This document shows positions 43,880 through 64,000 of a stretch of 64,000 nt of DNA, in pieces. The DNA is from Flammula alnicola (taxonomy: Eukaryota > Basidiomycota > Agaricomycetes > Agaricales > Strophariaceae), in contig JADNRV010000193.1 in the NCBI GenBank assembly GCA_015499995.1, forward strand, positions 29,686 through 93,685, in the 5' to 3' direction. The position numbers and the translations under genes were made by a program. The notes beneath the pieces are model-generated. The model was not told the origin of the DNA. It made no database searches and was given only the letters and a program-made list of their open reading frames with translations. Position 1 is the first letter of the stretch, and every line of letters begins with the position of its first letter.

Positions 43880-45141
43880 CCATCTCCCCGTTAATAGTGG
43901 CTGCTGCTGTGTGGCTGGTTTGGGAGTACATTATTACATGTCGCGATGAATATCTCTGTATTTGGAGGTCCGTATGTTGATATTTCCGCTGGCCTTTACT
44001 CAGTGACGTTGCCACAGAGGTTCCATAAGCAGGGTGAAAGTTCTGTACATGTTCGCTCGATATTTTCCCCTCGGTGTACAATGGTGAATGTCTATCTTTA
44101 AACACTCCCAGTGCTGACCGTGAAATCTTTCCAGGGTAAACACATATATTGTGTTCGTTCCACTATCCCGCGTGCCAGTTCCAAGACATGAATGCATGGG
44201 ATGGTTTCTTTTCTTACCGACCAGCGCAAGCGTTCTTCTGGCTGCTGTTGACAGCTTGATTATGGTCAGAGGTGAGAATCATGATCTTGTAATGTCAACA
44301 GATTGAATAAAACCCAATGACATGTAGTGTACGCCCTCTATAATTGCAGCTGGAAGATGGCGGTATTCCTCATAAGTCTATTAGTCATGCAAGGGATGCT
44401 GAGCGCGATATACTTGTATACCTCGCGACCTCTCCATCGTTTACCCTTCGGCGAGACCTGCAATATTCTCGAAACTCCACGCGAGGCGGCATATATCATG
44501 TGTGTTTGTTCATCATCTTGAAAAGAGGCCGTTAATGGACATCGATTTACAGGGCCGGCGTTGTGGTTACTCAAACAATTTTATTACTTTTAACCATCGC
44601 AAAAAAGAAAGTAGCATTTGGCGAGTCGCTTGTTGTCCATCTTGTAGTCCGTGACGGCGCTTGGGTATTCGTTCTGATTGTTTGTGAGTTGAGTTTGAGT
44701 CGTCCATTTATACATTCTGATCTCTGTTTACGTTTTCCCGTTAGCCTTGTGGGTGACAATTATACCCTACTCTCTGTTTACACAAGTGGCGAAGCCCCAC
44801 ATCATGCTCGTGTACGTTCCTTTGCTTCCCATGCTCGAGCAACGATAACGAGGCTATCTATTGGCATCCATAGCTGGCCAATCACTCTTCTGTCAGTCGC
44901 CGTATGTTTCCCTTTTTGCTCTGGTTGCTCTGGTGTTGACCCCACTTATCTCATACTGTAGATCTGCCGCGTCATTATCAACATGCAGAAAATTCCTGTC
45001 GACATGCGAGCTAATAGACATTCTAATTCAGGATCCACTGACATGGATATTGAATTCACAAGCTACATCGAAATGTTCGAAAACTCCCAGATATCTACCG
45101 CGTCTACACATCCGAGTCGTACAAGAGGGTCAACATCATAA
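43880..45141 (+). CDS. DUF6533-like seven-helix membrane protein (copy 2)
   Basis: Exons joined by short GT-AG introns keep one frame: AAAVWLVWEYIITCRDEY, KVLYMFARYFPL, CMGWF, VYALYNCSWKMAVFLISLLV, FGETCNILETPREAAYIM, HLVVRDGAWVFVLIV, ITLLSVAICRVIINMQK, and a polar tail to the stop at 45141. The order (WEYIIT, RYFP, LYN, ETC, VRDGAW, NMQ) is that of the DUF6533-type integral membrane proteins of Agaricomycetes, with about seven hydrophobic segments. The function is unknown. The first exon and start codon could not be settled; an ATG at 43829 does not splice cleanly. A 5'-truncated duplicate lies at 40504-41445 on the other side of the reductase gene. Confidence 0.65.
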
Positions 45142-45390
45142 CCGACCTTGCCCTGACTGACAGACTAGGAATGATGCATATTTTCGAAAACCTTTTCCCG
45201 CCGTCACCCAACTAAGTACTTACATAACTATGCCGAGGAACCTTGTGTATATTTCAGACTGTTCTCGTCAACTCCAGGGTGGAGATTTCCCCATGATGCT
45301 TTTGCCAGTCCTTTGTATTGATTGTCAATTGTCCAGTGGTTGTCCACAGCCTAATACATTCCACTATAGGAATTCACGTTAGTTGGGTGG
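44033..45390. repeat. direct repeat unit A, copy 2 (1.36 kb)
   Basis: The partner of 40504-41832. The two copies are close enough to align by eye over their whole length. They differ by small indels such as an extra TTGTATA in the membrane-helix exon and the ATTGGCATCC block near 44860 that is absent from copy 1. Confidence 0.8.
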
Positions 45391-46271
45391 TACCTAATAA
45401 CCATGCCATGAATGACAGCGCTGGTTCGCTGGGGTCCTACGTATCTTCGCCGCCATATCAAACAGTAATACCACCGTGGAATCAATTCATCTCTTCATGG
45501 GCACCAGCACCACGGAATCGGGAATCGAGGTGATGGACTCTCTGCCATGGGAATTATTCCAGGCTCTATTTTCTCTGCATTCGCTCGCCTTCAAGTTGAA
45601 CTGCCCAACACTTTCCCGAATTCATATTATTATTAATTTCGTAGCGTCCCAGGACGAGGAAGGAACAAAATTAACAACCGGCCCAAGCGGCACTTATCGA
45701 GCGAGTCCTAAGTTTGAGATTAGCAGACCTACTGTTGAATATTGAAGTGTGGATCTTTCTACTTCTTCGTACAGGGTTCTAAATTAGAGCCTCCTTCTTT
45801 CGATCACTTCTTGGAATATGCTACATGTATCTGTAGTGAAGCGTATGATTTTAATTTGGACTAACATTAAATATAGATGGGGTTGTTTGACGGATAAAAC
45901 TGCCAGGAAACCCCCAAAAGATGGTGAAAGATTGTAAAAGTTGTAAGTAAGTAACTGGAAAGAAGGGAAGCTGCGGCAAAGACAGCGACTAAAAAAAACC
46001 ACATGTAGAGAGACAAAGGATGAAGTTGAAGCAGCATGGAAACATGACCAACCCCAGTCTCGATTCTCTATCTCGTAGTAGCATTATCTTTCTTCGAGTC
46101 GTGTCCGCAGCGCACCGCACATCTTCCCAAGTTCGGTCGCCTTTCGTAGCCTAAACCGTGAACACGAATGCGGACGCGAAGAAATTGTAAATAAGTAGGA
46201 TCGGCCAAGCCTTTAGCTTTAGTGTCAGACACACAAGATCCACGAGGGGATGGGAGCACCTAATGCTGACA
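45391..46271. other. gene-poor region with dispersed repeat
   Basis: Short frames only. The third copy of the short dispersed repeat (GGATCGGCCAAGCC...ATCCACGAGGGG) lies near 46155-46250, immediately outside the hairpins that may mark a transposon end. Confidence 0.4.
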
Positions 46272-46322
46272 GTGATGTGCACATGCCTACTCTAGTAGAG
46301 TATTTAGGCATGTGCACATCAC
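46272..46322. repeat. large hairpin 1 (18-bp perfect stem)
   Basis: GTGATGTGCACATGCCTA at 46272 pairs perfectly with the sequence ending at 46322. The loop is about 15 bases and contains the smaller palindrome ACTCTAGTAGAGT. It lies 340 bp beyond the stop of the KDZ transposase. Confidence 0.85.
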
Positions 46323-46336
46323 ACTCTGAGCAGAGC

Positions 46337-46380
46337 ACTCTAATGTGCACACGAATGCCTAATCATGTGCACATTAGAGT
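46337..46380. repeat. large hairpin 2 (15-bp perfect stem)
   Basis: ACTCTAATGTGCACA pairs with TGTGCACATTAGAGT across a 14-base loop holding AATGCCTAATCA. It shares the ATGTGCACAT core with hairpin 1. Confidence 0.85.
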
Positions 46381-46660
46381 CAGCTCAGCACATGCTCAAG
46401 GCCATACAAGCCGTGCCGGCATATCCAAGGCATGCCTGCCGGCCTCTTGGTGCGCTTGTGGCGTGCATCCACACGCGCCTCCACACGCGCCTTGTGCGCG
46501 CTCAGGTGCGCCCATTCCCATATTTGTCAGCCCCCGCCGTTCCTCCAAGGGGCAACCGCCACATACCATTCTGGGTAATGTACTTAGTAGCTAGATCCAG
46601 TAAATCATTAAACCGCGTAATAAGCATCAATAAAATGTAATGCTTGTATTTCTAAGGATA

Positions 46661-49600
46661 TTACAGTGCATCTACAGATATAGACCCGAGGGGTGCATTA
46701 TGCTCAGCCTCATCTTGAAGCGGTGACACCTCGTCATCCTCACCATCGTCCTCCTCCCTCATGCTACTACTACGTGGAACAATATCACAGCGACCTTCAG
46801 ACTGTACATACTTTGCGACATTGCACCAGAGCATGCCACAGTGACACGCCATCATCAAGAATTGCTCCTGCTGGTTGAGCGCAAATGCGACCCGTCCTGC
46901 GTCGAACAGTGGGTCCGCCGGCACATTTGGAAGACACCAGCTAGCCAGATCCGCGGCGCGCTTAGACCAAGTTGCGGCACGATGGAGGAGGAACTGTTGA
47001 ACGCGCCGCATCTCCTCCTGCAGCAGTTCGACTTCCTCCCTCCATCGGTCTTGCCGTGCTCTGCTCTTACACCACTCCACGCGGAGAACTAAAGGTGTAA
47101 CATGTAGATATCAGTATAATCTGTCAGAAATTTCGAAGCATACACGCACTATCGTGGAGCGCCCCATCGCCGTGCATCTGCTCGCCAACCCCCGCATGCC
47201 TCCATATCCACGACAACATTCTATGACCCTCCGATGCGACCTCCTTCTCCGTCCCCCCTGGCTTCCTCCTTTGCTTCTTCCTCGCCTTCTCTGAGTCGTC
47301 ATCTTCAGCCGCTGCTGCACGGATGTCACCCTTCTTCAGTTCTGGAACAAGGTTCTCCCACCCCTCAACCCCTAATCGAGGCGCCAATCCAGCCAGCGCA
47401 GATCGCGCTGCACAGTATCGGTTTGCCGCAGCATTGACCTTGGCCTGACACCTCACGACGATGGTATTCACTCGAGTATTTGCCACTTGGCCACGCTGAA
47501 ACCGCGCCTTGTCGATGAGGACATAGGATCGAAGGCGGAGACCCTCGCGAAGATCGTCAAGCGCATCGGAGGCCTGTGCTTGGCGCAATTTCCATTCAAT
47601 ACTGAGCAGGCGCATGTCGCATGGAGTCGTGGAGGTCAGGGAGGAGGGAAGTCTGAGGAGCACCTCATGCGCGGGGATTTCCAGTTGTTCATCCATAGCG
47701 TCATGGGCACGAGCACGAACCATTCGTAGGCTGGGAATATACATGTGTTGAACCTCAATCCAGGCCTCGATCTTCCTCTTGAGTGTTGACATACGAAGCT
47801 TGAGGTTTGTCTTCTGTTTATCGGTAGCAGTAGTTGAGCTCAGACTTGCAGCGGTCATCGCCGTCTGACGTCTAGGATGTATGTTTAAATTGATATCTTA
47901 TTGAATAACATAACTAGAGACTTACTGGCTCTCCTCAAGGTCAATGCCCATAGAAATAAGGTGGCTGGCCGATATTTCCTCGTGCATTACATATGCGACA
48001 CCCAATGATGCGTCTGCATGTTCCTCGTCAGCAAGCTGAAGACGAACTGCATTTTGAGACAGCGCTAGACAGGCTCGTTATAAATAAAAGAATAAACCAT
48101 ACATTAGTCTGGTAACACACCTTTAACACGAGTTTCCATTGGATTAGGAAGGCTGGTATCCTTCTCCCAGGCAGATAGCTCCACCTCCCATAGCGAAACA
48201 TCCTCAGCGGGGAGCCTTTCTGTCAGCGCCTTGTGCAGCTCCCTATGCTCGACCATCTCAGGTACCGCATCTGTAATTCGCTTCAGGAGTATCGTCGCTA
48301 GAAATTTAAATGATCAGTTTCATTAAAATGTGCATAGAGGTGAATAACGCACCGAGCTTCACCGTCTTCTTCCAGTTCCAGTCTCCGAAATGGTCATCGA
48401 GAGTATCACGGCGGGCCCCCGGCCCCATTTCCCGAGTGCTTGAAGCAATGGGATTGATGTGAGCCCATCCACGTTCAACGCCTTCGCCATCTGTTCGCCC
48501 AACTTTGGGATTGAAATTGAACGAATACTTGGTCTGGCATTTCAGGACATGAGCGGGAAGATGGAATTTGGGGACCAGGAATCGATACGAGGTAGAGCTG
48601 TCATGATTAACGCGCATCCAGGATGGGTAGATTTTGAGGCGTTCCCAGAGGTTGATGCTCCATTGGCAGGCGATATCATATGATATCACGACCTCGACCA
48701 GCTCCTCGAGCTCCACGCTTGAGCAAAAGAGATAATCCATATTCACGTAGCTAAAAATAGATGCATTAGCAAACTTGTTCTATAAATATAAATGTCGTAG
48801 ATCACACACCGTTCGCCCTTCTGGAGATCTCCAACAGAGCTTGGGCGCTTCATATCGTGCCGAGTACAATCCACAGTCCCAGCCCCAGATGCTGCCAGCC
48901 CATCCTTTCCCCTCTCTTTGTTGACAGCGTTGTGATTGGAGCAAGTGCTGGGCTATTGTAGCGTTCATCAGAGGCGGCGACCATGAAAGAAATAAATCGG
49001 TACTCACCTCCTGTATTACGAGGGTTCCAAAAGTGTTTAAAAACTCCTTGAATTCACTCTCATGGACAAAGTATGCCCATCCATTGCTCAAGCTAGGATC
49101 CGAGGCATTATTGCTCACCATCTTCCGCTTCAATCGGAAGTTGGCATCCATTCCAAGGAAAAGAGTGTAGAGAAATCTAGAATGAGACATCAGTGACAAT
49201 AGATAATGAGATTCAATCATTCACACCTTTTTTCGGGGGGTGCATCCCTCCAATCGCTCTCCAGGTTTACTCCGGGATGAGGACATGCGGGACAGAGCAC
49301 GGCACATTCGCGTTGGCGCGTACCAGCTGCCCCAGAAGACTCGTGTCCACGTCCAGACCGCTTGAGCATCTTGATATTCCGGTACTGCCGGACCATTCTC
49401 ATGAACGCACGGTAGCGATCCTAATCAAGGCAGTTAGATAGATACTAAAGCGGCCCACTGGAATGAAATAGTATCTCACGGGAATTGTGGTCGTCCCTAT
49501 ATTGTCTGAAAGTCTTGCCAAAGACTGATAATACTCGAACGCAGATGCCTTGGATTCAAAGGATAGAATTTGAAAGGTATTGAGAACCCGCAGAGTGGCG

Positions 49601-50507
49601 GCTGAGCGAGGAAATCCGACGGTGGATGGGTACCAGCCAAAGCGAAGCAGTTGGACGAAATGGGGTGGAGGGGTACCACAGCCACAGTAGTTCAGCGTAA
49701 CTTCATGTATGCCATTCGTCTCTATGACAGTAAATGTGTTGTGGGAAGAGCGGACAGGGAAGTGGCAGGATTCGCCCAGCGGATGGCCGAGCTGGAAGCA
49801 GAAGCCTAGTGACTTGAAGCTAGTCTTTGCGAAGTACCCTTCTTCCCGCCAGACCTGTTACCACAAGGTAAGACATCCACATATGACATCAAGCAGGCAA
49901 ACTGACCTCGATCCGGTGCAAGCCATTCTGAAAGTGCCTGCGAAGAAGACAGCCAGAGCAGTACAGCTCACGGCCATCACAGTCAATGCACCGGTAAACC
50001 TGCGCGCCAGTATCACCACAGTCACGGCAGGTAGGCGTTAAAGTGCCACGGCTCTCTAATCGTAGGAACTCGGCGAGAAAGACTTCGCGATCGAGAAGCC
50101 ACTGCCGCATAGGAAAGTCCTGCCAGAACATTATTAAATTTTGTAATAGACAACAAGACTGTACATACCCCTTTGCGCTGTTTGCGAGTAGATGATTTTG
50201 GAATGCTGGTTTCTTCCAGAAACTCTGCGTATGCTGGATCGATTGCATCGTCAACATTTGCCTCCCAAATTGGGGCAGAGGATGGGTAAATTGGGTCATA
50301 TGGGTCATCCAATGCCGCGAAGTCGCCTGCATCAGTCAAATCGTCCAGCTCCACTTTACGGGAACGGTACCCCATTTGCCCGCTAGGCAGCATGCTGAAG
50401 GATGTCGAAAGGATAGGAGTGGATGCAGGCACAGGGGGATCAGGCTCGTCCGCGATGGAAATCATGCAGCCATTGGGTGAGCGTTGGCGGCGCCGTCGTT
50501 TCGACAT
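46661..50507 (-). CDS. KDZ transposase with N-terminal CxC2-like cysteine cluster
   Basis: About ten exons give a protein of roughly 1,000 residues. The start is MSKRRRRQRSPNG (ATG at 50507), a nuclear-localisation-like basic stretch. Next comes a treble-clef-like cysteine cluster: CRDCGDTGAQVYRCIDCDG, then YCSGCLLRRH. The KDZ core shows LFLGMDANFRLKRK (first Asp), CTRHDMKRP, VISYDIACQWSINLWERL (second Asp), PKFHLPAH, GRTDGEGVERGWAHINP (catalytic Glu region), and MGPGARRDTLDDHFGDWNW. The remainder is a long charged helical region and an acidic tail. All splice phases I could check are consistent and no stop or shift was found, so the gene may still be functional. KDZ transposases move DNA by an RNase H-fold mechanism in the nucleus. 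Confidence 0.9.
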
Positions 50508-51484
50508 GTCAAGATAGTATTCTGTAACAGTATGAACAAATTCTACATAGGCAGTACATGGAATATTATGCACCATGAGCTCACTCGTGGGTTCTGTGGT
50601 GGCAAGATCTCCAGATTTCTGCCGGATCGGTTCATTTCAATGCCATACGCAACATTTGCTGTTGAATTTTCCTTGTGTCGCGGCCCACGTTCGTGCGAAA
50701 TTACATTACCCTCCCCTCGTTTGACCTTTTGCAATGCAGAAGTGCCGCAAAGATCGCGTGATTGCATGCAAAGCGCTTATTCAACCATTATCCGTGTTTG
50801 CTCCATGCGTGCATGTATTCAAACCTGGCGACCCGATCATTATGTACGGATGCAGTAGATTAAACTGTAAAACCTTGTTCCATCATTGGTGCCTGATCGT
50901 TGTGATGGCACAGACGTCAGTTGTGGGTCCATGTCCACCGACACGCTCACTCGACGCAGGGTAGCTAGCTCATAGCTGTATGCAGTTCAACAGAACCACA
51001 GAAATTTCTTAGGAGATACTACTTGTGGGCATGTCTCAAGTGCTCTGAATACATACATATGCGCGATGCGTGAATTTCAAACAATGAATTTCAACGCATC
51101 TGCGTGACTAATACATATGCGCGATGCGCGAATTTCCAACAATGAATTTCAACGCATCTGCGAGACTTCAGTATTGCAAAAAGCTTCTGGATTTTTTTTT
51201 CCAGGCGCACGTTTGCTCATGAATACATTACCCCCCCCCTGTTCGACCTTTTGAGATGCGGCAAAAGGAATTCCAGCTCGGTCAGGAATATATTACCCGC
51301 CCCCTCATTCGACTTTTTGGGACGCGGTGCCGGCAAAACTCAGCCGTGCCCTTATTCAACCGCTATCTGCGTTGCTCGATGCATGCGGGAACATGCGGCG
51401 GCGGCCAGCATATTCTGAATGTGGCGATGCTCATGATAACAGAGCTGCATTGAGGAAATACGCCTAATACGCTAATACATTTGA
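50508..51484. other. spacer between TET/JBP and transposase genes, with internal repeats
   Basis: No gene. It holds the promoter of the transposase and the 3' end of the oxygenase gene. It contains a 58-bp tandem duplication (51055-51165) and a diverged duplication of about 120 bp: 50690-50830 resembles 51285-51405. Shared words include CATTACC...CCCTCGTT(T/C)GACCTTTTG and TTATTCAACC(A/G).TATC. Confidence 0.6.
51055..51165. repeat. 58-bp tandem duplication
   Basis: Two adjacent copies contain ACATATGCGCGATGCG, GAATTTC, AACAATGAATTTCAACGCAT and CTGCG. They differ by a few substitutions and lie in the spacer upstream of the transposase gene. Confidence 0.8.
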
Positions 51485-53216
51485 CTAGGTTGTACGGAAA
51501 GTATTTCTACCAAAAATAAAGGCACGATCATCGGGGAGACTGGCTGCAGTCGAAAAAAGTTGCAGCGCAGCCTCGGTCCGATCTTCTAACTTACCGTCGA
51601 TGAGTTTCTTCTGCGCCCTACCTGCCGCGGTCAATTTGAGAGTGGTTCCAGTTTGGAACCCATAGTCTACCCATCGAAACAAACCGCCTGAGCAGTATTG
51701 CGTCATGGACATCCGCTGCACTCCCTCTCCAATGACCGGGGTGTTCCCATGCCGAAGCACACTGGACGGGATCAAGATAGTGGCACCAGGGGGGAACTCG
51801 ATCACCAGGCCGAGGTCAAAAAGGACCATATGACCGCCGAGAGTTGGATCGAAATTGCCAAGTGCAGTGATGGCACAGAGGCCGTAGGCGACATTGTTGT
51901 AATCCGTGTGATCAACCGTTATCGTTCCAGGCCCAAGGTTGAACGTACAAGCTGGGAAGATGCTGCATGTAGGGAAGTTGGGGCGCAGATGTGGGGAGTG
52001 GTCATAGAGCCGCGAGAGATAGGATCGATATACGTTGTAGAGCTTCGGCGCATAGAATGCAAATGCACCTGTAGAGTTAGAATGGCAGTTAGCAATTATA
52101 GGCCCGAAGATTCTCAAATGAAACTTACCACTCTGGAAGCCGGCTATGCGCTTGATGTCGTTGTGCTGGCAGAGAGATTGAATGATGGCTTTAAGTCTCC
52201 CAGGAATGCCCAGATTACCCGGTTGCTGGAATAGAGTTGTTAGTATGAATAGATGCACCACAGAGCCACCACCAAATGATACTCCGGTCGGAATCGCGTA
52301 ATAATTGCCTCGACGGTGGTTGAAAGGGTCCTTGCTCGCCGACGGTGCAAAAGCTCCATTCCGCTTGCCTTCGACGCGCGCCTGGGTCATAGCAGATGCG
52401 GCCTTCCTCACAGAAGGCATCCATGTCGGATCTTTGGGCCGGGCCACGAGGAAAACCAGGCCGTGACCGTCCATGTCAGTGTACGTCTGGGATGACCTGA
52501 AAATAAATTAGTCTGATATCCGTAAGAAATAGAATTGAATATGCACTCTCCGTCCCACGGAACACGCTCCATGTTCAACGCCATGAGCTCATCCAGCGTC
52601 CAAGTCCTAGGCTGGCGTTCAGCTTCCACCTTCACAGCGCGACGCCCAATCCAATTACCGGCAGGAAGGTTGCGAGATTCGAGGGACACCTTCTTTGCAG
52701 GGATATCGCGATAGCGCGTGAGGGCGTTGAGCCTTGGACAGTGAGCAGGGATGGAAACGGTAGGTGCGGCAAGCTTCCAGCGTGCTTTGGATCGATCCTT
52801 GGCACGCGCTTTCTCGATCTTCCCCGGTTGTGCAATGGTGTATGGGCGAGCTGGGATTGGAGCTGATGCAGAGGCGAGGCGAGCAGATTGTCGAGGGATG
52901 GGACTGGATGAGAGTCGACATTGGGATAAACGCGCAGATTGTCGGTGTGGAAGGGCGTCCTCAAAGGGTGTATCCTCGTTGTCACCCACATCGCGATCAG
53001 AGCGAAGTTCGGCGACTTCCAAGGCGTTTCGAAAGAGGGGGGCCATGAGCACTTTGAACGCCGTGCACTTGTTGAGGCCGATCGAGAATGCGTCACGTAT
53101 TCCAAGGACATAGTCCCCGAATGAAGTCCCACTGCGCGTCTGGACATATCAATTAGAAACCGAGTAAGTGAGGAGGGCCAAAGGGAACTTACCACACGAC
53201 GGATTGGAGTTTCCAT
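51485..53216 (-). CDS. TET/JBP-family 2OG-Fe(II) oxygenase (transposon-borne)
   Basis: Exons run from the ATG at 53216 (53216-53193, 53139-52547, then from 52496 onward with two further introns) to the stop at 51485, in one frame. The N-terminal ~190 residues are basic and Ser/Arg-rich, possibly DNA-binding. The domain starts near MDGHGLVFLVARPKDPTW. Key residues: VDHTDYNNVAYGLC (iron ligands HxD), SSVLRHGNTPV (distal His), and RMSMTQYCSGGLFRWVDYGF (2-oxoglutarate Arg and C-terminal signature). TET/JBP enzymes oxidise 5-methylcytosine or thymine in DNA. In basidiomycetes they are amplified together with KDZ transposons. This copy looks complete, with no missing ligand. It probably acts in the nucleus on methylated DNA; whether it helps the element escape silencing is inference. 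Confidence 0.9.
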
Positions 53217-53322
53217 ATTGCAAATGCACTAGTACACACTAGTGCGGTGTTCGTCGCCAACTGTAAGGGCGTATAATCACGTTAGTCAATGCATAAACAC
53301 AGAGTAGCAACTGCAAAAACTG

Positions 53323-53550
53323 CGGCCAGGGTGTCTGGGTGGACTCGCCTGCACCGCGGAACGAAATGACGGAAATGGAAAACGCGCGGCCAGGGTGTCT
53401 GGGTAGACTCGCCTGCACCACAGAACGAAAGGACGGAAAACGCAGGTGCACGCGGCCAGGGTGTCTGGGTGGACTCGCCTGCACCGCGGAATGAAATACA
53501 AGAAGCACCGGTGCACGGCCAGGGTGTCTGGGTGGACTCGCCTGCACCGT
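53323..53550. repeat. minisatellite, four copies of a 63-66 bp unit
   Basis: Units begin at 53323, 53387, 53453 and 53516. Each has a conserved core of about 38 bp that includes CGGCCAGGGTGTCTGGGT and GACTCGCCTGCACC, with variable spacers between. It sits 107-335 bp upstream of the TET/JBP start codon. Confidence 0.9.
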
Positions 53551-53569
53551 GTACTCACATGAATGGCCC

Positions 53570-54772
53570 TTGAGTGACGACGTTGGAAAGTTGTGGGGGG
53601 AGGGAATAAAAAAAAGCAAAACGCCCACCTTATACCAGAGATCGAGGGCCCCTAGCGAAAATATGATACCCGCACCTACGGGTCAGGCATCATCCGCGGG
53701 TGCCAAAACCGGTGCGGGCTGGGTTGGGGGTATGGTATTGAGGGCGGCATGCGAGGGTGCGTGGGGCACTTGCTGCGCAGATATCGGGTTGGGAGGGGCG
53801 GTCGTTGTGCGTTAACTGGCCAGGGGTGGTCGGTATGCCTTAGGGGGGTGCAGTGCAGCAGAGTGTGCAAGGCGATGGGCGGTATTCGTCCATTGGCGGT
53901 GGTGATGCTGTGCGTACAAGTTAACACTGGAAATCACGAAGAAAATCGTTCGTTGACATACCTGGCGGGCCTCCCATTGCATGGGTCCCCCCTTCTGTAC
54001 TCCAAGTCCCCGTGAATCCGTCATCGTCGAATGAAAACCCCGCCACACCCATGTCTGACGGAGGGGAAGGGCTCACACTGCACATGTCGTCGACGTTGGA
54101 GGTCCACGGCGCGCGTGTTAGTCTGAGCGGTTCAGGTTTGCTGAGTGCGGTACAACGTTGGGAGCCGTGCCGGTTTGAAACCCATGTCGTTCACGCGGGA
54201 GGCTCACATTCCTCTTTTGGTAAATGTGATGATCGCCCCTTTTGGACGATCAAGATTCACATTGACGATCTGCCAAATATAGTAATATGGCCTAGCGCCT
54301 GTGCCTACGGCTCGCATACGGTCGCATATGGGTCGCATATGGTCGCATACGGGTCGCATACGAGTCGGACCACTGTAGATGGTCGCATATCAGTCGCATA
54401 CACCTCTTATTTTGTCAACCGTGTGCGCTCTGCTGCGTTATATTAAATATACAAGATATACCATAGTTGAGTAATGTACTAGCTACAATTAGATAGTGTT
54501 TGGGAAGCTCAGAGAATCTATTGCATGTCGGTAATAAATAGATCAGTACATGCAACTAAACATATATATTTAACATACTACACTCAGTACCACCATGACC
54601 AAGAAATCTGGCAAGGATGGTTTGACCAAGCATCAACGTTATTATCAACGGTGAGCAGTGATATATTTGATTATATCACTTCTCTAGATATTCACTGTAA
54701 ATACAGGCATCGAGATACAGTAAACGGGAAGAACGCAAAGCGCAATAAGGAGAGACGGGTCAAACGGTGCGG
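53570..54772. other. non-coding region between two mobile elements
   Basis: No gene was recognised. It holds the TCGCATA array and G-rich stretches, and may contain the true right end of the KDZ element. Confidence 0.4.
54312..54400. repeat. short tandem array of TCGCATA words
   Basis: TCGCATA occurs seven times, at 54312, 54322, 54333, 54343, 54354, 54383 and 54394, mostly with 10-11 bp spacing. It resembles sub-terminal repeats of DNA transposons or MITEs. Confidence 0.8.
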
Positions 54773-55797
54773 TGTGGAGGAGATGGATAGCGCGCTCGTA
54801 GAAACAGCGGGCAAGTCCGAATTCCCACGTGATGCCGATCAAGCCGTGCACACTACCGCGCGACCATCGATTTGAATACCCCGCGTAGCATACCCTTTTC
54901 TCCCCATTTCAAACACTTCATACACTCATTACATGATCCTTTTTCATCTCCGAAAACCCCCGTACTCTCACCTCTCTTCGTTACTCCACAGACACCGTAT
55001 TTCACACGCAATGGCCGTGAGAACGCGCCTCGGCAAGCCCCGTTTTGCGCTCAAGGTGTACCGCGGTCTGCCTCGACGAAAGAACAACTTCAAGTACGAT
55101 CTACACCGATGGAAGGATGGGAAACCAAGCCAAGAGGAACCATACGGCTGGTAGGAGGTCCTATTTGCAAATTCTATTCCGTTTTATTCCATTTTATCTT
55201 GTTTCATCTTGATTCTCGATCACTTCCGCATCTCTTTCTCTTTTCAAATAGCCGACACCGAGTGCAACGAGACGACACGCTGTACGCAGGAGGACGCCCC
55301 GCCCTAACGTGCGACGAGCAGCGGACACGGTCTGGTCCACCGTGGAAGATTGTATGTCCCTTGAGCAAGGATGTACAGTTCACTCGCGCCCGCACCAAGC
55401 CTCAATCTTGCCTCCTATCCTGCGTGCGGCCGAAATATCGTTGCACAAGGTCGAAGACCCTTTTTCTTTTTCAAATGGACAATCTAGCACATGCGTAGTA
55501 TATTTGATTTGATTTCTTGGGCCTGGCGACGCAAGAGTACGCGTGCGCCAGGAAAATCTCTATATACCCGCGTTTGTAAACTTAGGAGTCCTTAGTCAAT
55601 CTACCCCCACTTTGATTCGGAAAACACTACGAGGAGCACGAGCTATTGAGCAAGAGCATCGAGCAGAGCGCGCCGTGACATTCGCTATCTACACAACTTC
55701 TCAAATACCCCGTACTTAGGCGCCCATCAGCGCCGCTCTCTCTTCTCTTTTCGACGACCTCAATCCAACCTACCTGGAAAAGATCAGCTCTTCCACA
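54773..55797 (+). repeat. 5' LTR
   Basis: 1,025 bp, starting TGTGGAGGAG and ending CTTCCACA. Short inverted ends (TGTGGA/TCCACA) are visible. Confidence 0.95.
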
Positions 55798-55935
55798 GTA
55801 GCTATCGAGACTGGATCAAAGGTTTTCCGTCGAAAACAACCACTGCTGAGTCCCTGAATTTCGATTTTTTCCCACTTTCCATTCTGTCTACACTTCTCTC
55901 CCAAACTTCCCTTCTTCCCTGTCGAAGCTTACAAC

Positions 55936-58356
55936 ATGGCGACCCCGCCGCAGTTGTTCACGCAGCTGAAGCCGATGCCGATTCCTCGGACATTAAGCGC
56001 ACCTTTATTCGATGGGAAATATGTCAATGACTTCTTAGCTATTTTAGAGCGACATGGGAATTCCGCGGGGCTGCTCACTTCCGAGCTCCCAAAATACATT
56101 GTCCAATACTGCACTGACGAAGTTAAACAGGTCATCCGGTTTTGCGATGAGGTCGAGGGTGCTGACTGGGACAAGGCGAAGCAGCTCCTCGTTGACTTAT
56201 ACGGGTCTAATGACGAACCGGCAAAGGCGACACTCGAAACCCTCAGGCTTTTCGTCAAGGAACACGCGAAGGGTAAAGAATTTGGCAGCCGAGCTGACGT
56301 TGATATCTATCATAGGAGCTATCTCACGATTGCCGCGCAACTTAAGTCAAAGACGTTGATTGACGAGAACGAAATGAAGCTCAAGTTCTTTGCGGGTCTT
56401 CCACGAAGAACCCGAGCGTTTGTAACCTCTCGCCTTCCTCCCGCCAACTTGGCTACCACCTCACCACCTCAAATCAAGACGGTGATCGAAATTATATGCC
56501 GCCAGTTCAACCCGAACAGCATCGAGTCCTACAATGTGGAATCAGATGCTGACGACTCTGACGACGATACGCCCAGCGCGGCCCCATTGACAAAGCCTTC
56601 ATTACTGCCTCTCACTAGTGTCCTCGAGTCAGCTAGACCCAAGAGCAGCAATATCAAGACCGACATCGATCTTCTCACCCAGCAGCTGCAGCAGCTCTCA
56701 ATCAGCCAAGCTCAGATGCAGCAGATGTTTCAGACCGCGATGAGCGCAGGATCCTTCTCTCGTCCTTCTAACAGTACGAACCCCGCTGATAAAACTTGTT
56801 TCATTTGCGGACAGGTTGGAACGCACCGGTTGCACCCTCGTTTCTGCCCGGAAACAGCCAAGCTCATAGCGGAATCGCTCATCAAGTTTGACGCCGCCCG
56901 CGCTCGATACACACTCATGGACGGAGCAGACCTTCCGTTGATACCATTCACGCCGGGCGGTGTCGCTCAATACCTGCGCGAGCATCGAAGTGACTTTCCG
57001 CGGCGCGAACCACCACCTCACACCTTGACAGCGAGCGCGTCTCCCGCGACGCTAATGATGGGCGACTATCCGGCGTTGTGCGGTGACGTGTACGCCATCG
57101 CATCAAACCAAGATGAGTTCGATTTCAGCGACTCTTACCCTGTGACACGCACTGGCAAAGATACTGCTCCTAGACATGACCCAACACGACGACCGCCTGC
57201 GAGGAAACAGCCCGAGCGGCCGAATACGCCTGCAAGTGCACCGATGCCTGCACCTCGCCAGCCATCAGGACCGGCGCCTACGACATCTCAACATATTCCC
57301 AACGAAGCGCGTGTTCCCGGCACTAATGGGTCCGCACCGCCGCCGCCCATCAATACGCGTGAAGGGTGGAAGGAGTCGCTCCCTCGCAACAACAAGGACG
57401 TCGAAATGAAAGATGAACCAAAGAGTAAAGCCCCTCAGTACCACTACACGTCGGACGTTCAGGAGAAGATCTCCATGCAAGACATCCAGGATCTCATTCT
57501 GCAGACTCAGGTAACCCTGACATTGCGTGACATCTTAGGCATATCCCCGGGACTCCAAAAACGAATGGCGGATGCTACGAAGACTCGACGGGAATATTTG
57601 ACAAAGTACGGCGAGTACGATCTCTACACGGCGCAAGCCGAAGAAGAGTTCGCGAAGACCAGCGTGGGAGCGCAAGTAAATTCGGCGAGTTCTCTCCAGT
57701 TTGACGAATTGAATGATCCTTCCATGCTTGATTCATTCATGCTCAGGTACTCGAATGCAGTCAGCTTCAGGCCTACAAAGAAGTACGCGATGACTACAGG
57801 CATTTTTACTGCTGATCTTGCGGGAATGTCCATCCGTCTCATGGTCGATTGCGGCTCTGAGCTCAACATTTTCCCTGAGCGCCTTCTCGCCCAGACCAAC
57901 TTACCTCTTGACTACGAGGGCACGCGTTGGTCCCTGAAGGGCGTCAACGGTGGTCCTGTGGGTCTGAGAGGGGTATGCAGAGACGTACCGATATCGATCG
58001 GCGGCCACAGATTTGACCATCATTTCTTTGTTACGCGCGAGGACATGGACTCACAAGATTGCATTTTAGGACAGCCTTGGATTCAGTGGTTCGCCGCGCG
58101 TATCGATTACTCAAGAATCGGTCACATGAAGATTATGCTATGGAAGGATGGCGATCGAAGCAACAACCCTACGATCTCGGTACAGCTGACACGACCCAAT
58201 GACCCAAGGAATGTCGATGCAACAGGACCACTCCCAGGGGCCTCACGACCAGTAACCGAAGAATCGGAGACAGCTCATCAGCAGCACTCGCACCACCAAC
58301 GAGCATATATCGAGGAGGTCGACGATGATGATGCGTACGCCCGATATTTTCATTAG
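55936..58356 (+). CDS. retrotransposon Gag with aspartic protease
   Basis: A single frame of 806 residues. The N-terminal third is capsid-like (LFDGKYVNDFLAILE, VIRFCDEVEGADWDKAKQLL). A zinc-knuckle-like CFICGQVGTHRLHPRFC lies near residue 290 (56797), with unusual spacing. A proline-rich linker follows. The C-terminal ~180 residues hold a retropepsin-like domain with LMVDCGSELNIFP (active site near 57847) and CILGQPWIQW. Carrying the protease at the end of gag rather than the start of pol occurs in some fungal Gypsy elements. The frame ends in TAG, 69 bp before the pol ATG. Confidence 0.9.
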   Translation: MATPPQLFTQLKPMPIPRTLSAPLFDGKYVNDFLAILERHGNSAGLLTSELPKYIVQYCTDEVKQVIRFCDEVEGADWDKAKQLLVDLYGSNDEPAKATLETLRLFVKEHAKGKEFGSRADVDIYHRSYLTIAAQLKSKTLIDENEMKLKFFAGLPRRTRAFVTSRLPPANLATTSPPQIKTVIEIICRQFNPNSIESYNVESDADDSDDDTPSAAPLTKPSLLPLTSVLESARPKSSNIKTDIDLLTQQLQQLSISQAQMQQMFQTAMSAGSFSRPSNSTNPADKTCFICGQVGTHRLHPRFCPETAKLIAESLIKFDAARARYTLMDGADLPLIPFTPGGVAQYLREHRSDFPRREPPPHTLTASASPATLMMGDYPALCGDVYAIASNQDEFDFSDSYPVTRTGKDTAPRHDPTRRPPARKQPERPNTPASAPMPAPRQPSGPAPTTSQHIPNEARVPGTNGSAPPPPINTREGWKESLPRNNKDVEMKDEPKSKAPQYHYTSDVQEKISMQDIQDLILQTQVTLTLRDILGISPGLQKRMADATKTRREYLTKYGEYDLYTAQAEEEFAKTSVGAQVNSASSLQFDELNDPSMLDSFMLRYSNAVSFRPTKKYAMTTGIFTADLAGMSIRLMVDCGSELNIFPERLLAQTNLPLDYEGTRWSLKGVNGGPVGLRGVCRDVPISIGGHRFDHHFFVTREDMDSQDCILGQPWIQWFAARIDYSRIGHMKIMLWKDGDRSNNPTISVQLTRPNDPRNVDATGPLPGASRPVTEESETAHQQHSHHQRAYIEEVDDDDAYARYFH

Positions 58357-58424
58357 CGCAGGACACGACCACGCGGCCGCCAACTCTCTTCAACGTGTCT
58401 TGCGCAACTATAGGCCGATCACTC

Positions 58425-61400
58425 ATGGGTCTTCTCGGAGATCCTGAGTTTCGTGAGTTTGATAATTTTCTCTATTCTTTTGACCCTCCAGATTCGTTTG
58501 ATTATTTATTGAGACAAGTAAGTCTCGCATCTAATAGTTTAAGACCGCTAACTACGTCGTGGACGCTCCGAGCATTATCTAGCTCACCATATACCCATTC
58601 GCGCACTGTATCCCTCACTGCGAAACGCAAATACAAACCCGTGGACCGCAAAGTACGGCCAGTACCTACGTACATGCCAAACCCCGTGGCTCTCGAGTTC
58701 AAACCTATCCCCTTACCGCCGATATCACAACTCCCATCAAAACCTCCGCATTTTGCTTCGCTGGAACCTACGGAAAGGATGACAGCTGAGCGTCTCTCTC
58801 TTCTCTTAAACACAATACCTGAAGGATTTCTTTCTCCAGAGGAGGTAAACCTGCTCGCGTTCGTGGTGGCGAGGCGCGAGAAAGCGTTCGCGTTCACGTT
58901 TGCTGAGAAAGGAACATTCCGTCAAGAATTTTATCCAGATTATGAAATACCAACTATCGAACATACGCCGTGGCAGCGTCCTCCAATCCGAGCGCCTAAA
59001 GCCCTAGAGGAGGTTATACGCCAAGAAATCCTGGAGCAGGAGGCTGCGGGACGCTTTGAGGCGACATCATCAAGCTATAGATCGGCCCTCTTTGCCGTGG
59101 CAAAGAAAACGAACAAAGTACGCCTGGTCCTTGACCTTCAGGAACTAAACTCCGTCACGATCAGAGACGCGGCGCTACCTCCGTCGGTGGACGATTTTGC
59201 TGAAGCCTTTATCGGGCGAGCAATCTATGGATGTGTCGATCTATTCGCCGGATATGACGCACGCATATTAGCTGAGTCCTCACGTCCTCTCACGGCATTT
59301 CATTCACTTTGTGGACCCAAACAACAGGCAACTCTACCAATGGGTGCTACAAATGCTGGAGCGGAATTCCAGCGATGTGTCAACCACGCTTTACAAGAAG
59401 ATATCGATGTCAACGCGAAGGCATTCATGGATGATGGAGGAATCATGGGACCGCACACGACGTACGACGACGCGCCCATTGACGACAACCCCAACATCCG
59501 ACAATTTGTATTCGAGTACGCTACAACGTTGGATCGGATTCTCGCGCGATTCATTGCAGCAGGAATCACGGCGTCGGGACTCAAAACCACGCTCGCAACG
59601 CCGCGCCTTCGTATTGTTGGGTCTGTAGTATCGATCGAGGGATGGCACCTTGAGAAAGGGCTCATCTCGAAGATAACGAAATGGCCTTCCTGCGAGAACG
59701 TGTCTCAGATCCGAGGTTTCCTAGGAGTAATGGGATGCGGAAGAAAATGGATCAAGAACTTTGCTTTAATCGCTAAGCCTTTGACATCTCTATTGCGAGT
59801 CACTGATGCCGATTTCTCATTCACGCAGGAGGCGCAGGATGCGATGGATTCTCTCAAGCAACTTGCCACGACAGCGCCGGTGCTCATCAAGATCGACTAC
59901 GACAAAGCCAAACTCATCACTCAACTGCCGCGGGCGTCTGACGAAGGACTTGTAACTGTCGCCGTCGACGCAGCAGCCTTATATGGTGCGGGGTGGGTGG
60001 TATATCAACATCTCGACAATCAACGCCGACCTGCCGTTTATGGGTCATGCACCTACAATGAGCGCGAAACGCGATACTCGCAACCAAAAGCAGAGCTCTA
60101 TGGAGTGTTTCGCGCCTTCAAGCACCTCAGACATCGCATTTGGGGCATCCGATTTTGTCTAGAACATGACGCTAAGTTCCTTCGTGAGATGATCGTGACA
60201 CCTGATTTACCAAATGCTCCTATGACCAGGTGGATTGCGTATCTGCAGCTTTTTGATTTCGAAATGCACCATGTGAAAGCCGAAAAACACCAAGCTCCGG
60301 ATGGCTTATCTCGAAGGCCGAAATCGGACCAAGATTCCGAAGATGAGGAGGAGTCGGAGGAATATCTTGATAGATTTATCGGGAATTTCTTAGCGTCGGA
60401 TAAAGAGTTGCCACAGGGGTTCTGGCATAAAGATTCATATAAACTCTCAGCAAGGCAAGTTAAATCTGTTCTTCGAACCATACAACTTGCTCGCAGTGCT
60501 TTCTCTATGTCATCAGCTCCGTATACCCGACTATTGCAACCACAGGCCCAATATAATATTCACGCCAATGCCTCTCGACCGCCGGCGCTTAACTTCTACA
60601 ACCTATTCACCACCGGAATCTTGGTCGACTCGGAGCCGCACTCGGGCGCTAGGCATCCGCAGTTCCCAATTCGCCCAACTCGGTTCGATCCTTCCAACTG
60701 GACTCGCAATAATCTGGCCGACTACACCCTTCTCCGGGTGACTGACACCATGACGTACATGGGCCGTGAATTCTTCGACCGCAAAACGCCAATCGAGCAA
60801 GAAGTTGAATACCGTTTGGGTGATGAGGTCATCAACCTTTCTGTCACCTCATATCACTATACGTACGCGTCGCGGCTGCGAGCAGGTGAGTACCCTCCAG
60901 CTATAGTCGATCATTCAGTGGTTGGATATTGTGCGGTCGAGGAGAGGACTGATAGCCGAGCCAACTATGAAATACTCACTGCGCCAGAGCATCGCGAGGC
61001 TATTGCATGTATTGGTCATAAGTTTGGAACCACAGACTTGGACGCACCTGAGATGTGGAAGGACCTCCGAGCCTTCTTTACCGATGGATCACTTCCTGCT
61101 CTGTGTCTGACGGACACGAAAGAGAAGGAAAGGTTCCTTAAGCGTGCTAACCGTTTTCTTTTCTTCGAGGAACGTTTATGGCTCAAGCCCAGCAACAAGA
61201 GCTCGTCCCTGCCCCGCCTCGTTATCGAAGATAACCAACGACGCCAAGAATTACTCGTAAAAGTACACGATGAGTGTGGCCACCGAGGACGAGACCCCAC
61301 TTACGTCAAACTTGCCGAGCGCGTATACTGGCCGAACATGTATAACGACTGCGCGTATTTCGTGAGATCGTGCGTACCCTGTCAATTCGAGTCAAATGCT

Positions 61401-61778
61401 AAACCTATCATTCCATATAACCCATCCTGGATGTCATCAATCCTCCGTCATTGGCACATGGACTGCATTCACATGCCTCTCGGCGTCGGCGGAAAGCAAT
61501 ACCTCATCCAAGCAACTTGTTCAGCATCGAAATGGGACGAAGCCGAAGCTATACGTAAGGCTAATGCCGACACCATCGCGAAGTTCATTTATAAGTTGGT
61601 GTGTCGTTTCTCTTGTATTCCCTACATCACGGTCGATGGCGGCTCTGAGTTCAAAGGAGTCGCTGAGGAGGTGTTCCGCCAATATGGCATTGTCGTTATT
61701 GTGTCTACAGCTTATCACCCCGAGGGAATGGCGTGTCAGAGCGCGCAGCACATCAGACCCTCGTCCATGGCCTCATGA
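58425..61778 (+). CDS. retrotransposon Pol: reverse transcriptase, RNase H, integrase (frame 1 part)
   Basis: The ATG at 58425 is the first in a frame that is open from 58395. The RT shows KVRLVLDLQELNSVT, YGCVDLFAGYD and the catalytic box FMDD (59423). RNase H begins near VTVAVDAAALYGAGWVVY, with the Glu in AELYGVFRAF. The integrase has the zinc-binding HH-CC (HDECGHRG ... SCVPCQ) and the catalytic Asp in HWHMDCIHMP and in TVDGGSEF. The expected AYHPEG is reached, then the frame turns to unrelated sequence. True Pol continues one base out of frame from about 61727. It is expressed separately from gag, by re-initiation or readthrough. Confidence 0.9.
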   Translation: MGLLGDPEFREFDNFLYSFDPPDSFDYLLRQVSLASNSLRPLTTSWTLRALSSSPYTHSRTVSLTAKRKYKPVDRKVRPVPTYMPNPVALEFKPIPLPPISQLPSKPPHFASLEPTERMTAERLSLLLNTIPEGFLSPEEVNLLAFVVARREKAFAFTFAEKGTFRQEFYPDYEIPTIEHTPWQRPPIRAPKALEEVIRQEILEQEAAGRFEATSSSYRSALFAVAKKTNKVRLVLDLQELNSVTIRDAALPPSVDDFAEAFIGRAIYGCVDLFAGYDARILAESSRPLTAFHSLCGPKQQATLPMGATNAGAEFQRCVNHALQEDIDVNAKAFMDDGGIMGPHTTYDDAPIDDNPNIRQFVFEYATTLDRILARFIAAGITASGLKTTLATPRLRIVGSVVSIEGWHLEKGLISKITKWPSCENVSQIRGFLGVMGCGRKWIKNFALIAKPLTSLLRVTDADFSFTQEAQDAMDSLKQLATTAPVLIKIDYDKAKLITQLPRASDEGLVTVAVDAAALYGAGWVVYQHLDNQRRPAVYGSCTYNERETRYSQPKAELYGVFRAFKHLRHRIWGIRFCLEHDAKFLREMIVTPDLPNAPMTRWIAYLQLFDFEMHHVKAEKHQAPDGLSRRPKSDQDSEDEEESEEYLDRFIGNFLASDKELPQGFWHKDSYKLSARQVKSVLRTIQLARSAFSMSSAPYTRLLQPQAQYNIHANASRPPALNFYNLFTTGILVDSEPHSGARHPQFPIRPTRFDPSNWTRNNLADYTLLRVTDTMTYMGREFFDRKTPIEQEVEYRLGDEVINLSVTSYHYTYASRLRAGEYPPAIVDHSVVGYCAVEERTDSRANYEILTAPEHREAIACIGHKFGTTDLDAPEMWKDLRAFFTDGSLPALCLTDTKEKERFLKRANRFLFFEERLWLKPSNKSSSLPRLVIEDNQRRQELLVKVHDECGHRGRDPTYVKLAERVYWPNMYNDCAYFVRSCVPCQFESNAKPIIPYNPSWMSSILRHWHMDCIHMPLGVGGKQYLIQATCSASKWDEAEAIRKANADTIAKFIYKLVCRFSCIPYITVDGGSEFKGVAEEVFRQYGIVVIVSTAYHPEGMACQSAQHIRPSSMAS

Positions 61779-62755
61779 AAGCGTGCCATAAGGATAAGTC
61801 CAAATGGCCGCTCTATGTTGACGCGATTTTGTTCTCGATTCGCGTTACCACTAACCGAGTCACAGGGTATCCTCCTTATTACCTGGTCTATGGTATATTC
61901 CCGGTATTCGCGTTCGACATCGAGGACGGAACTTGGCAAACCTTGGATTGGGATACCGTCCGCACCACCGCTGACTTAATCGCCCTTCGCGCCCGACAAA
62001 TCGCTCGCCGAGATGAAGATGCAGAAATCTCTTATGAGCGTGCGCGCTTTTCACGTCAGCAAGCCATCGATAACTTCAATAAGCGTTACGGTAAAAATTT
62101 CTCCTTTCATGGGTTTGATGTTGGGATGTGGGTGCTTCGCCACGAGACGTGGTTGGACAATCAATTTGGCAAAAAGGACTTTTGGCGCTGGTCGGGGCCG
62201 TACATTATTCACGAGAAGCGCGATAATAACACCTATGTGTTGCGCGAGCTCAACGGCACGGTTATGCGAGGCCATGTTACTGCTCACCGCCTCAAACTTT
62301 TCTTTTTTAGGTCAGAAAATCACCTTATGAAGACCGTCACCAACACACGCCTGTACTATGATATTCAGCACTTCGAGAAGCACTACATCCAGACACTTCG
62401 TTCTTCGAGCGGCCTTCACGCAGTACGCCACCCCGACATCGACTACTACCACTACAACAAGGAGCCGCACGGCGACGACGAGCTTCCGTTTCCAGACTAC
62501 GCATCAGTGGGCGCGCGCTTTCCGCTCCGCATATTATATTTCCCTGGTATGGCTTCCAAGCCTGTCAACCTCGCCCTTGCACACCGACCGCACTGGGGCG
62601 GTTCTATCCGTGATGACCCCGCCTTTGAATCTTTCGAAAAATGGTCCAAGAAACTCGCGATCATGGCCACGGATGAGACGTCAATCACCGAGAAGATCTT
62701 TTCGCCTGCTAACGCGAACCCGAACCGCTATGCCTTGGGGTTTATTCGAACGTAA
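61733..62755 (+). CDS. retrotransposon Pol: integrase C-terminal part (shifted frame)
   Basis: An open frame of about 340 codons without its own good ATG. It begins VSERAAHQTL, the direct continuation of AYHPEG in integrases, followed by PLYVDAILFSIRVTTNR, PYYLVYG and a GPY-like module (FWRWSGPYIIHEKRDN). A single missing base near 61725-61728 (GAGGGAATGG) explains the break. Either this copy is defective or the base was lost in assembly. No chromodomain was recognised after the GPY-like module. Confidence 0.85.
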   Translation: MSERAAHQTLVHGLMKACHKDKSKWPLYVDAILFSIRVTTNRVTGYPPYYLVYGIFPVFAFDIEDGTWQTLDWDTVRTTADLIALRARQIARRDEDAEISYERARFSRQQAIDNFNKRYGKNFSFHGFDVGMWVLRHETWLDNQFGKKDFWRWSGPYIIHEKRDNNTYVLRELNGTVMRGHVTAHRLKLFFFRSENHLMKTVTNTRLYYDIQHFEKHYIQTLRSSSGLHAVRHPDIDYYHYNKEPHGDDELPFPDYASVGARFPLRILYFPGMASKPVNLALAHRPHWGGSIRDDPAFESFEKWSKKLAIMATDETSITEKIFSPANANPNRYALGFIRT

Positions 62756-62923
62756 TGTCCCCTTCTTTTTCTGTTGATTTTGCCATCACACTCCTTTCAC
62801 CGCGCCGTTTCTATGCCTTACTTTGACTCTCTTATTTTGTTCTTGTTGTTCTCTCACTTACTACCCATCACACTCCTTCTTTTATCTTCCATCTCATCAC
62901 TTTGGATGTTGGGGACAACATCT

Positions 62924-62932
62924 AAGGGGGGG
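62924..62932 (+). promoter_or_regulatory. polypurine tract
   Basis: AAGGGGGGG lies three bases before the TG of the 3' LTR, as needed to prime plus-strand synthesis. Confidence 0.8.
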
Positions 62933-62935
62933 CAC

Positions 62936-63958
62936 TGTGGAGGAGATGGATAGCGCGCTCGTAGAAACAGCGGGCAAGTCCGAATTCCCACGTGATGCCG
63001 ATCAAGCCGTGCACACTACCGCGCGACCATCGATTTGAATACCCCGTAGCATACCCTTTTCTCCCCATTTCAAACACTTCATACACTCATTACATGATCC
63101 TTTTTCATCTCCGAAAACCCCCGTACTCTCACCTCTCTTCGTTACTCCACAGACACCGTATTTCACACGCAATGGCCGTGAGAACGCGCCTCGGCAAGCC
63201 CCGTTTTGCGCTCAAGGTGTACCGCGGTCTGCCTCGACGAAAGAACAACTTCAAGTACGATCTACACCGATGGAAGGATGGGAAACCAAGCCAAGAGGAA
63301 CCATACGGCTGGTAGGAGGTCCTATTTGCAAATTCTATTCCGTTTTATTCCGTTTTATCTTGTTTCATCTTGATTCTCGATCACTTCCGCATCTCTTTCT
63401 CTTTTCAAATAGCCGACACCGAGTGCAACGAGACGACACGCTGTACGCAGGAGGACGCCCCGCCCTAACGTGCGACGAGCAGCGGACACGGTCTGGTCCA
63501 CCGTGGAAGATTGTATGTCCCTTGAGCAAGGATGTACAGTTCACTCGCGCCCGCACCAAGCCTCAATCTTGCCTCCTATCCTGCGTGCGGCCGAAATATC
63601 GTTGCACAAGGTCGAAGACCCTTTTTCTTTTTCAAATGGACAATCTAGCACATGCGTAGTATATTTGATTTGATTTCTTGGGCCTGGCGACGCAAGAGTA
63701 CGCGTGCGCCAGGAAAATCTCTATATACCCGCGTTTGTAAACTTAGGAGTCCTTAGTCAATCTACCCCCACTTTGATTCGGAAAACACTACGAGGAGCAC
63801 GAGCTATTGAGCAAGAGCATCGAGCAGAGCGCGCCGTGACATTCGCTATCTACACAACTTCTCAAATACCCCGTACTTAGGCGCCCATCAGCGCCGCTCT
63901 CTCTTCTCTTTTCGACGACCTCAATCCAACCTACCTGGAAAAGATCAGCTCTTCCACA
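62936..63958 (+). repeat. 3' LTR
   Basis: 1,023 bp, the partner of 54773-55797. It is identical by eye apart from a 2-bp loss (near 63047) and one substitution (near 63352). Confidence 0.95.
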
Positions 63959-64000
63959 GCGGTCAAATTCAGAACTTATGATTTCAATGACTTCTACTAA

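What the first reader, a model, noticed from the sequence alone, without database searches (positions are those of the whole stretch)
46272..53570. Apparently intact KDZ transposon carrying its own TET/JBP DNA-base oxygenase
Seen: the transposase and the oxygenase are adjacent, on the same strand, each with continuous reading frame and all catalytic motifs (transposase GMDANF, YDIACQW, DGEGVERGWA; oxygenase HTD, distal His, Arg). Known: basidiomycete KDZ elements travel with TET/JBP genes that oxidise 5-methylcytosine. Inference: this copy may still be mobile and could lift methylation silencing from itself.
Basis: partly seen in the sequence, partly recalled or inferred. Interest (0 to 1): 0.85.

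Follow-up and report, generated by a model that had tools for sequence, protein, structure and literature searches.

The report
Mobile mushroom transposon carrying TET oxygenase
A jumping DNA element of a wood-rotting mushroom carries its own TET-like enzyme, of a kind distinct from the one already studied in mushrooms; it has spread recently, yet its copies still show the scars of DNA methylation, so the enzyme has not kept them clean.

Summary
The KDZ transposase and the oxygenase are real, adjacent and on one strand, inside one mobile element. That element is larger than the finding and incomplete in the window: left end at 46257, right end beyond the window, found in sister copies. Eight copies share the left end with eight different flanks; three left/right contig pairs share exact 7-bp target duplications, so transposition is shown. 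Without an inserted Gypsy retrotransposon it is about 13.6 kb, with a third gene outside the window and 14 TGTGCACA palindromes (0.35 expected).

The oxygenase folds as a TET but lacks both marker residues of the CcTet-like 'AG' type. KDZ-linked TET hits in this genome are convergent to the transposase when found by PF12851 (16 of 16; one checked, AG), tandem or divergent when window-type (17 of 17; many are copies of one another).

'Intact' holds partly: this copy lacks 21 bp of a TET intron, leaving 33 nt. 'Lifts methylation from itself' is not supported: 66 of 79 substitution events among copies are CpG transitions, as in the one KDZ pair without a detected TET. The Gypsy stretch at the contig end looks shared by the assembler.

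The parts
46257..54772 (-). left half of the KDZ-TET element (genes on the minus strand, so this is the 3' half); left terminus CACCTAATG at 46257
   Evidence: 7 other copies share this boundary with different flanks; a divergent copy on C4 (85%) starts at the same base
46276..46373 (.). four TGTGCACA palindromes at the left terminus (46276, 46311, 46344, 46366)
   Evidence: 14 in the whole element against 0.35 expected; 4 at each end and 6 upstream of the third gene
46661..50507 (-). KDZ transposase gene, 11 exons, 1098 aa, with CxC2 and KDZ domains
51485..53216 (-). TET-like dioxygenase gene, 5 exons, 511 aa; HTD (H371, D373), H424
   Evidence: fold
52226..52258 (-). TET intron 3, 33 nt here and 34 in C856; 54 nt in C848, C605, C612, C852 and C557
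   Evidence: splice site by homology
53316..53549 (-). tandem repeats of about 63 bp upstream of the TET gene
   Evidence: offset self-matches; sequence
54773..63959 (+). Gypsy LTR retrotransposon nested in the element (LTRs 54773-55798 and 62936-63959, 99.7% alike; protease, RT, RNase H and integrase zinc-binding domains found by Pfam); presence in this very copy uncertain because of the assembly
63960..64000 (-). first 41 bases of the right half of the element; the contig ends here
   Evidence: the right half with the third gene is read in C856:43564-48618 (L018, L023)

Best explanation
This is the left half of an autonomous-type KDZ DNA transposon (Kyakuja-like by its 7-bp target duplication) in Flammula alnicola. 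It encodes a KDZ transposase, a TET-fold dioxygenase and, outside the window, a third protein of unknown fold. The transposase, probably with the third protein, binds the TGTGCACA clusters at both ends and moves the whole unit, so the TET travels as cargo (movement shown; binding inferred). The TET most likely oxidises methylated bases in the element family or the genome at large (inferred from fold and active site). It does not keep the resident copies free of CpG methylation over time: they decay by CpG transitions like a KDZ pair without detected TET. Its benefit, if any, is more likely short-lived, at the time of expression or transposition, than lasting protection in cis.
Against: Among the contigs examined none holds a copy with both ends. 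TET frames are open in only 2 of 6 fully covered copies (window, C848); C605, C612 and C856 have indels that may be assembly errors, C557 a stop. Four listed homologues outside the alignment have lost the H or D (P0086, P0116, P0125, P0166). The termini are CA..TC, not the CA..TG given for Kyakuja. No expression or activity data. One control pair only, and a TET acting in trans could affect both.
Confidence: 0.75

Rival explanations
1. The element's TET demethylates the element itself in cis and so lets it escape silencing (first reader; proposed in general by Kojima 2025).
For: TET fold with catalytic residues; over 99% alike copies, so recent spread; Kojima 2025 argues for escape (PMC12730594).
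Against: CpG transitions make up 66 of 79 events, spread over transposase (36 of 446 CpG sites), spacer (12 of 118) and TET (16 of 250) alike; the bias is no weaker than in a KDZ pair without listed TET.
Confidence: 0.15
2. The TET oxidises 5mC and the oxidised bases are themselves prone to deamination or faulty repair, so that TET activity adds to the CpG decay.
For: Heavy CpG decay in a TET-bearing family; in L. bicolor and C. cinerea 5hmC/5fC are enriched at TET genes and in TEs (PMC8889193, passages).
Against: A KDZ pair without listed TET shows about the same ratio, 25 against 30 (site definitions differ slightly), so TET in cis is not needed.
Confidence: 0.1
3. The window shows an ordinary old repeat cluster whose adjacency of transposase and oxygenase is accidental or an assembly product.
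For: Contigs C105, C605, C612 and C848 all end at the same base, and beyond about 53.8 kb C605 and C612 have no substitution against the window, unlike the first 7.5 kb: an assembly effect for the Gypsy part.
Against: TET and KDZ hits lie 2737-2739 bp apart in 6 copies, at 2761 in C318 (cut by the contig end) and further in C557 by its insertion; substitutions differ between copies across both genes.
Confidence: 0.03

Closest known systems
TET+ Kyakuja DNA transposons (Kojima 2025, PMC12730594; Kyakuja-1_LB and -2_LB of Laccaria bicolor)
   Same: KDZ transposase, TET inside the ends, 7-bp target duplications, no terminal inverted repeats
   Different: termini CA..TC instead of CA..TG; TET lacks the AG-type markers; subterminal TGTGCACA clusters are not mentioned in the sections I read
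CcTet of Coprinopsis cinerea (7vpn, 7w5p, 8jkk), the solved AG-type TET
   Different: 16% identity; no sequence match by phmmer or profile; Gly331 and Asp337 are N and C here by ungapped count from the HxD
PE-type TETs of fungal transposons (Kojima 2025)
   Same: distant from known TETs in sequence; recognised by structure
   Different: HxD here (50 of 50), HxE is the PE hallmark; no PE sequence was at hand, so a deeper link is open
TETs found by PF12851 in the same genome
   Same: 16 of 32 lie within 10 kb of a KDZ hit
   Different: two were read: C49 (KDZ-linked) and C323 (no KDZ hit within 10 kb), both with AG markers; the 16 linked ones are all convergent, the 17 linked window-type ones tandem or divergent

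Membership tests
KDZ transposon | KDZ transposase domain above the curated cut-off | tested here: met
   PF18758 228.1 bits (cut-off 26.6), PF18803 CxC2 129.4 (27)
Kyakuja | 7-bp target site duplication | tested here: met
   TGGACGG (C848/C156), CTAATGT (C605/C663), ACTCAAT (C318/C222)
Kyakuja | 5'-CA..TG-3' termini | tested here: not met
   CACC..GACTC in the 8 left and 5 right ends read; the feature is described from two L. bicolor families
Kyakuja | no terminal inverted repeats | tested here: met
   termini unlike each other; only subterminal inverted similarity, 75% over 105 columns
Kyakuja | transposase groups with Kyakuja in a tree | not tested
   no reference transposases of the three lineages at hand
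TET/JBP dioxygenase | TET fold with HxD...H iron site | tested here: met
   (model of P0001, the annotated C856 copy, 99% identical)
TET/JBP dioxygenase | Pfam Tet_JBP above its cut-off | tested here: not met
   18.7 bits against 34.9; 18 of 50 homologues match at E 0.01 or better
TET/JBP dioxygenase | oxidises 5mC or 6mA | not testable with these tools
   needs an enzyme assay
AG-type TET | Asp at the CcTet Asp337 position, Gly or Ser at 331 | tested here: not met
   C and N, by ungapped count from HxD; invariant in the 50 aligned; positive controls C49 (S, D) and C323 (G, D) meet it
PE-type TET | HxE instead of HxD | tested here: not met
   HTD; HxD in the 50 aligned
PU-type TET | residues conserved in Pucciniomycete TETs | not testable with these tools
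   reference sequences not held

The most novel reading that the evidence does not exclude
Agaricomycete KDZ transposons captured TET enzymes at least twice: the known CcTet-like AG type, convergent to the transposase, and a second, to my knowledge unnamed HxDxxN.....C class (this one), tandem or divergent to it. The second class is common in mushrooms and may have another substrate or role than cis demethylation, in an element whose ends and third gene are tied together by TGTGCACA sites.
Probability: 0.4. Interest if true: 0.6.

Novelty: new variant of a known kind. Interest (0 to 1): 0.5.

Why it matters
TET-carrying transposons are usually explained as self-demethylating. Here a recently mobile family with open genes allows a test from sequence alone, and its copies still carry CpG scars, no fewer than a relative without detected TET. 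If the second TET class is a separate capture, a large set of mushroom TET-like genes lies outside the biochemistry known from CcTet. The defined ends, duplications and end motif also give handles for testing KDZ transposition.

Tried and rejected
Tried without result: sequence searches of the PDB with the oxygenase, its profile and P0066 gave no TET; only the fold search worked. Pfam on the third protein: no family over its cut-off, only homeodomain matches at E 0.09-0.13. I recall that Iyer et al. 2014 report an HMG-like further protein in such elements, but could not test this (paper not held). A regex count over listed homologues (HxD in 161 of 162 with a match, N at D+3 in 159, C at D+9 in 160, 31 without a match) gave one apparent HxE, scanning for HxE anywhere, showed three, all in other parts of the proteins, and four proteins that lost the H or D. 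I therefore lean on the alignment. A telomere origin of the C856 left junction was dropped: one CCCTAA only. Dating by LTRs was not pursued, as the shared contig ends make the Gypsy copies unreliable. My first splice site for TET intron 3 (36 nt) was replaced by one 3 nt further on after comparison with P0001 and P0002; the copy table still uses the first. CpG counts: one search gave 94 events (68 of 76 C:G>T:A at CpG). For one search I masked C605 and C612 beyond 52700 and C318 beyond 51600, where clustered indels or a contig end gave doubtful differences, leaving 79 events. In the fold comparison CMD1 appears but not among the 50 entries; this is no evidence against it.

Full report
Where it is. 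The window is contig C105:29686-93685 of a 74.4 Mb, 861-contig genome, and the contig ends with the window. The best protein match of the oxygenase, P0001 (99% identity over 58% of the query), is named Flammula alnicola and lies on a contig of 213917 bases, the length of C856. I therefore take the organism to be Flammula alnicola.

What is there. On the minus strand, a KDZ transposase reads through 11 exons (50507-46661, 1098 aa) and, upstream of it, a TET-like oxygenase through 5 exons (53216-51485, 511 aa), with GT-AG introns and no stop. Pfam gives KDZ 228.1 bits, CxC2 129.4 bits and Tet_JBP only 18.7 bits, under its cut-off.

The ends. Blast of the window against copies fetched from the genome shows a sharp left border at 46257 in seven further copies (C848, C605, C557, C215, C612, C318, C852), each with another flank; C856 matches from 46490 and lacks the first 233 bases; a divergent copy on C4 (85%) begins at the same base. 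The right border was found through C856: four other contigs (C156, C663, C205, C222) share the sequence up to C856:48618 and then differ. Of the five right flanks, three begin with exactly the last 7 bases of a left flank: C848/C156, C605/C663 and C318/C222. C205 matches no left flank read, and the left end of C856 is lost. This is the signature of transposition with 7-bp target duplications. Without the Gypsy the unit is about 13.6 kb. The finding covers roughly half of it.

The right half, outside the window, holds a plus-strand gene of 708 aa. My model equals the annotated BDZ97DRAFT_1761864 (P0195, 100%). The capped search (7989 candidates scored) listed four proteins, that one included: a second from F. 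alnicola, one from Pholiota molesta and one unnamed. No Pfam family passes its cut-off. The gene is also present, whole or damaged, in the right halves on C156, C663, C222 and C205. Distant relatives (29-48% identity) lie on C160, C307, C857 and C649, each roughly 7 kb from a KDZ hit, so it looks like a recurring companion of KDZ transposases.

A motif. TGTGCACA occurs 14 times in the element, against a mean of 0.35 and a maximum of 3 in 200 first-order Markov sequences: four within 120 bases of each end and six upstream of the third gene. It occurs once in the 46 kb of the window to the left. The simplest reading is a binding site shared by the ends and the third gene's promoter; this is inference.

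How intact. The transposase frame is open in the window, C848, C605, C612, C856 and C318 (6 of 9 copies); C852 has a stop, C557 a 598-bp insertion, C215 is cut off at 50384. The TET is fully covered in six copies: open in the window and C848; C605 and C856 have net frameshifts, C612 a compensated shift over some 75 residues, C557 a stop. Some of these indels may be assembly errors. The window and C856 lack 21 bp of TET intron 3, leaving 33 and 34 nt against 54 in five others. Such a short intron may not splice; if kept, it is in frame in the window (the frame 51485-52507 is open across it) and adds 11 residues. Against C848 the window TET also differs at six residues, four of them in the N-terminal part.

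The Gypsy. The LTRs 54773-55798 and 62936-63959 are 99.7% alike, and the empty site is seen in C663 and C222. But C105, C848, C605 and C612 all end at the same base, 41 after the LTR, and beyond about 53.8 kb C605 and C612 have no substitution against the window, although the part before it differs at 25 and 28 sites. C848 has two. C663, which shares the C605 duplication, lacks the Gypsy. I conclude that the end of the window contig was probably taken from a shared repeat path, and that the Gypsy is certain only in C856, which is read through.

Two arrangements. In the genome, 16 of 32 PF12851 places lie within 10 kb of a KDZ hit, all convergent. Of 42 window-type places 17 do, 10 tandem with TET upstream (8 of them this family) and 7 divergent. 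The two sets do not overlap. Many of these places are near-identical copies, so the counts are copies and not independent events, and only C49 of the 16 was typed. I read the contrast as separate captures. The homologue searches found 243 and 477 proteins, 120 listed each; the names that I recognise are mushroom-forming fungi. A Laccaria protein (P0096) carries CxC2 and a TET part of this class in one gene model. Whether Iyer et al. 2014 already set this class apart I could not check (not held); the paper searches on this were made, of which I opened Kojima 2025, PMC11040006 and PMC8889193.

Does the TET protect its element? Among 9 copies over 46257-53200, 66 of 79 substitution events are CpG transitions, 30 times the rate at other C sites, spread over transposase, spacer and TET (unmasked 68 of 76 C:G>T:A events at CpG). 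Another KDZ pair, L001/L002, with no listed hit of either TET kind within 10 kb, shows 26 CpG transitions among 35 differences, ratio 25. The two do not differ (p = 0.30). This is one control pair, and the genome searches list best candidates only. CpG-biased C-to-T hypermutation of repeats is reported from another Agaricomycete, Tricholoma matsutake (PMC6980582, passages), while Kojima 2025 cites that hypermutation was not detected in Agaricomycotina. The data say that these copies were methylated, or mutated at CpG, since they spread. They do not exclude a brief effect at the time of expression, nor a trans effect on all families.

Verdict. A real, recently mobile KDZ element with a TET cargo: a new variant of a known kind. 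Its most notable points are the TET class and the failure of the self-protection prediction.

Noticed in passing
54773-64000, window end: Four contigs end at the same base 41 bp past the Gypsy right LTR and share an almost identical last 10 kb: likely an assembly product, so gene order at the window's right edge should not be trusted.
   Followed up: partly
L016 (C557), about 4145-4742: 598-bp insertion in the KDZ gene with GGTAGGGG..CCCCTACC inverted ends and a TTA or TA duplication, like a small non-autonomous DNA transposon.
   Followed up: partly
L010 (C856), about 1400-1640: The C856 copy lost 233 bases of its left end and abuts short degenerate repeats.
   Followed up: partly
C222:48731-55655: The right half on C222 is interrupted by about 7 kb of other sequence.
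   Followed up: no
C160:66964-68026, C307:41201-42263, C857:198925-199987, C649:8292-9820: Distant relatives of the third gene near other KDZ hits, a possible second family with the same companion gene.
   Followed up: no
window 40499-41827 and 44027-45393: Direct duplication, 86% identical, flanking a 3-beta-HSD-like reading frame at 42458-43255.
   Followed up: no
P0096 (Laccaria bicolor): One gene model holds a KDZ CxC2 part followed by a TET part of the same class: the same association in another genus.
   Followed up: partly
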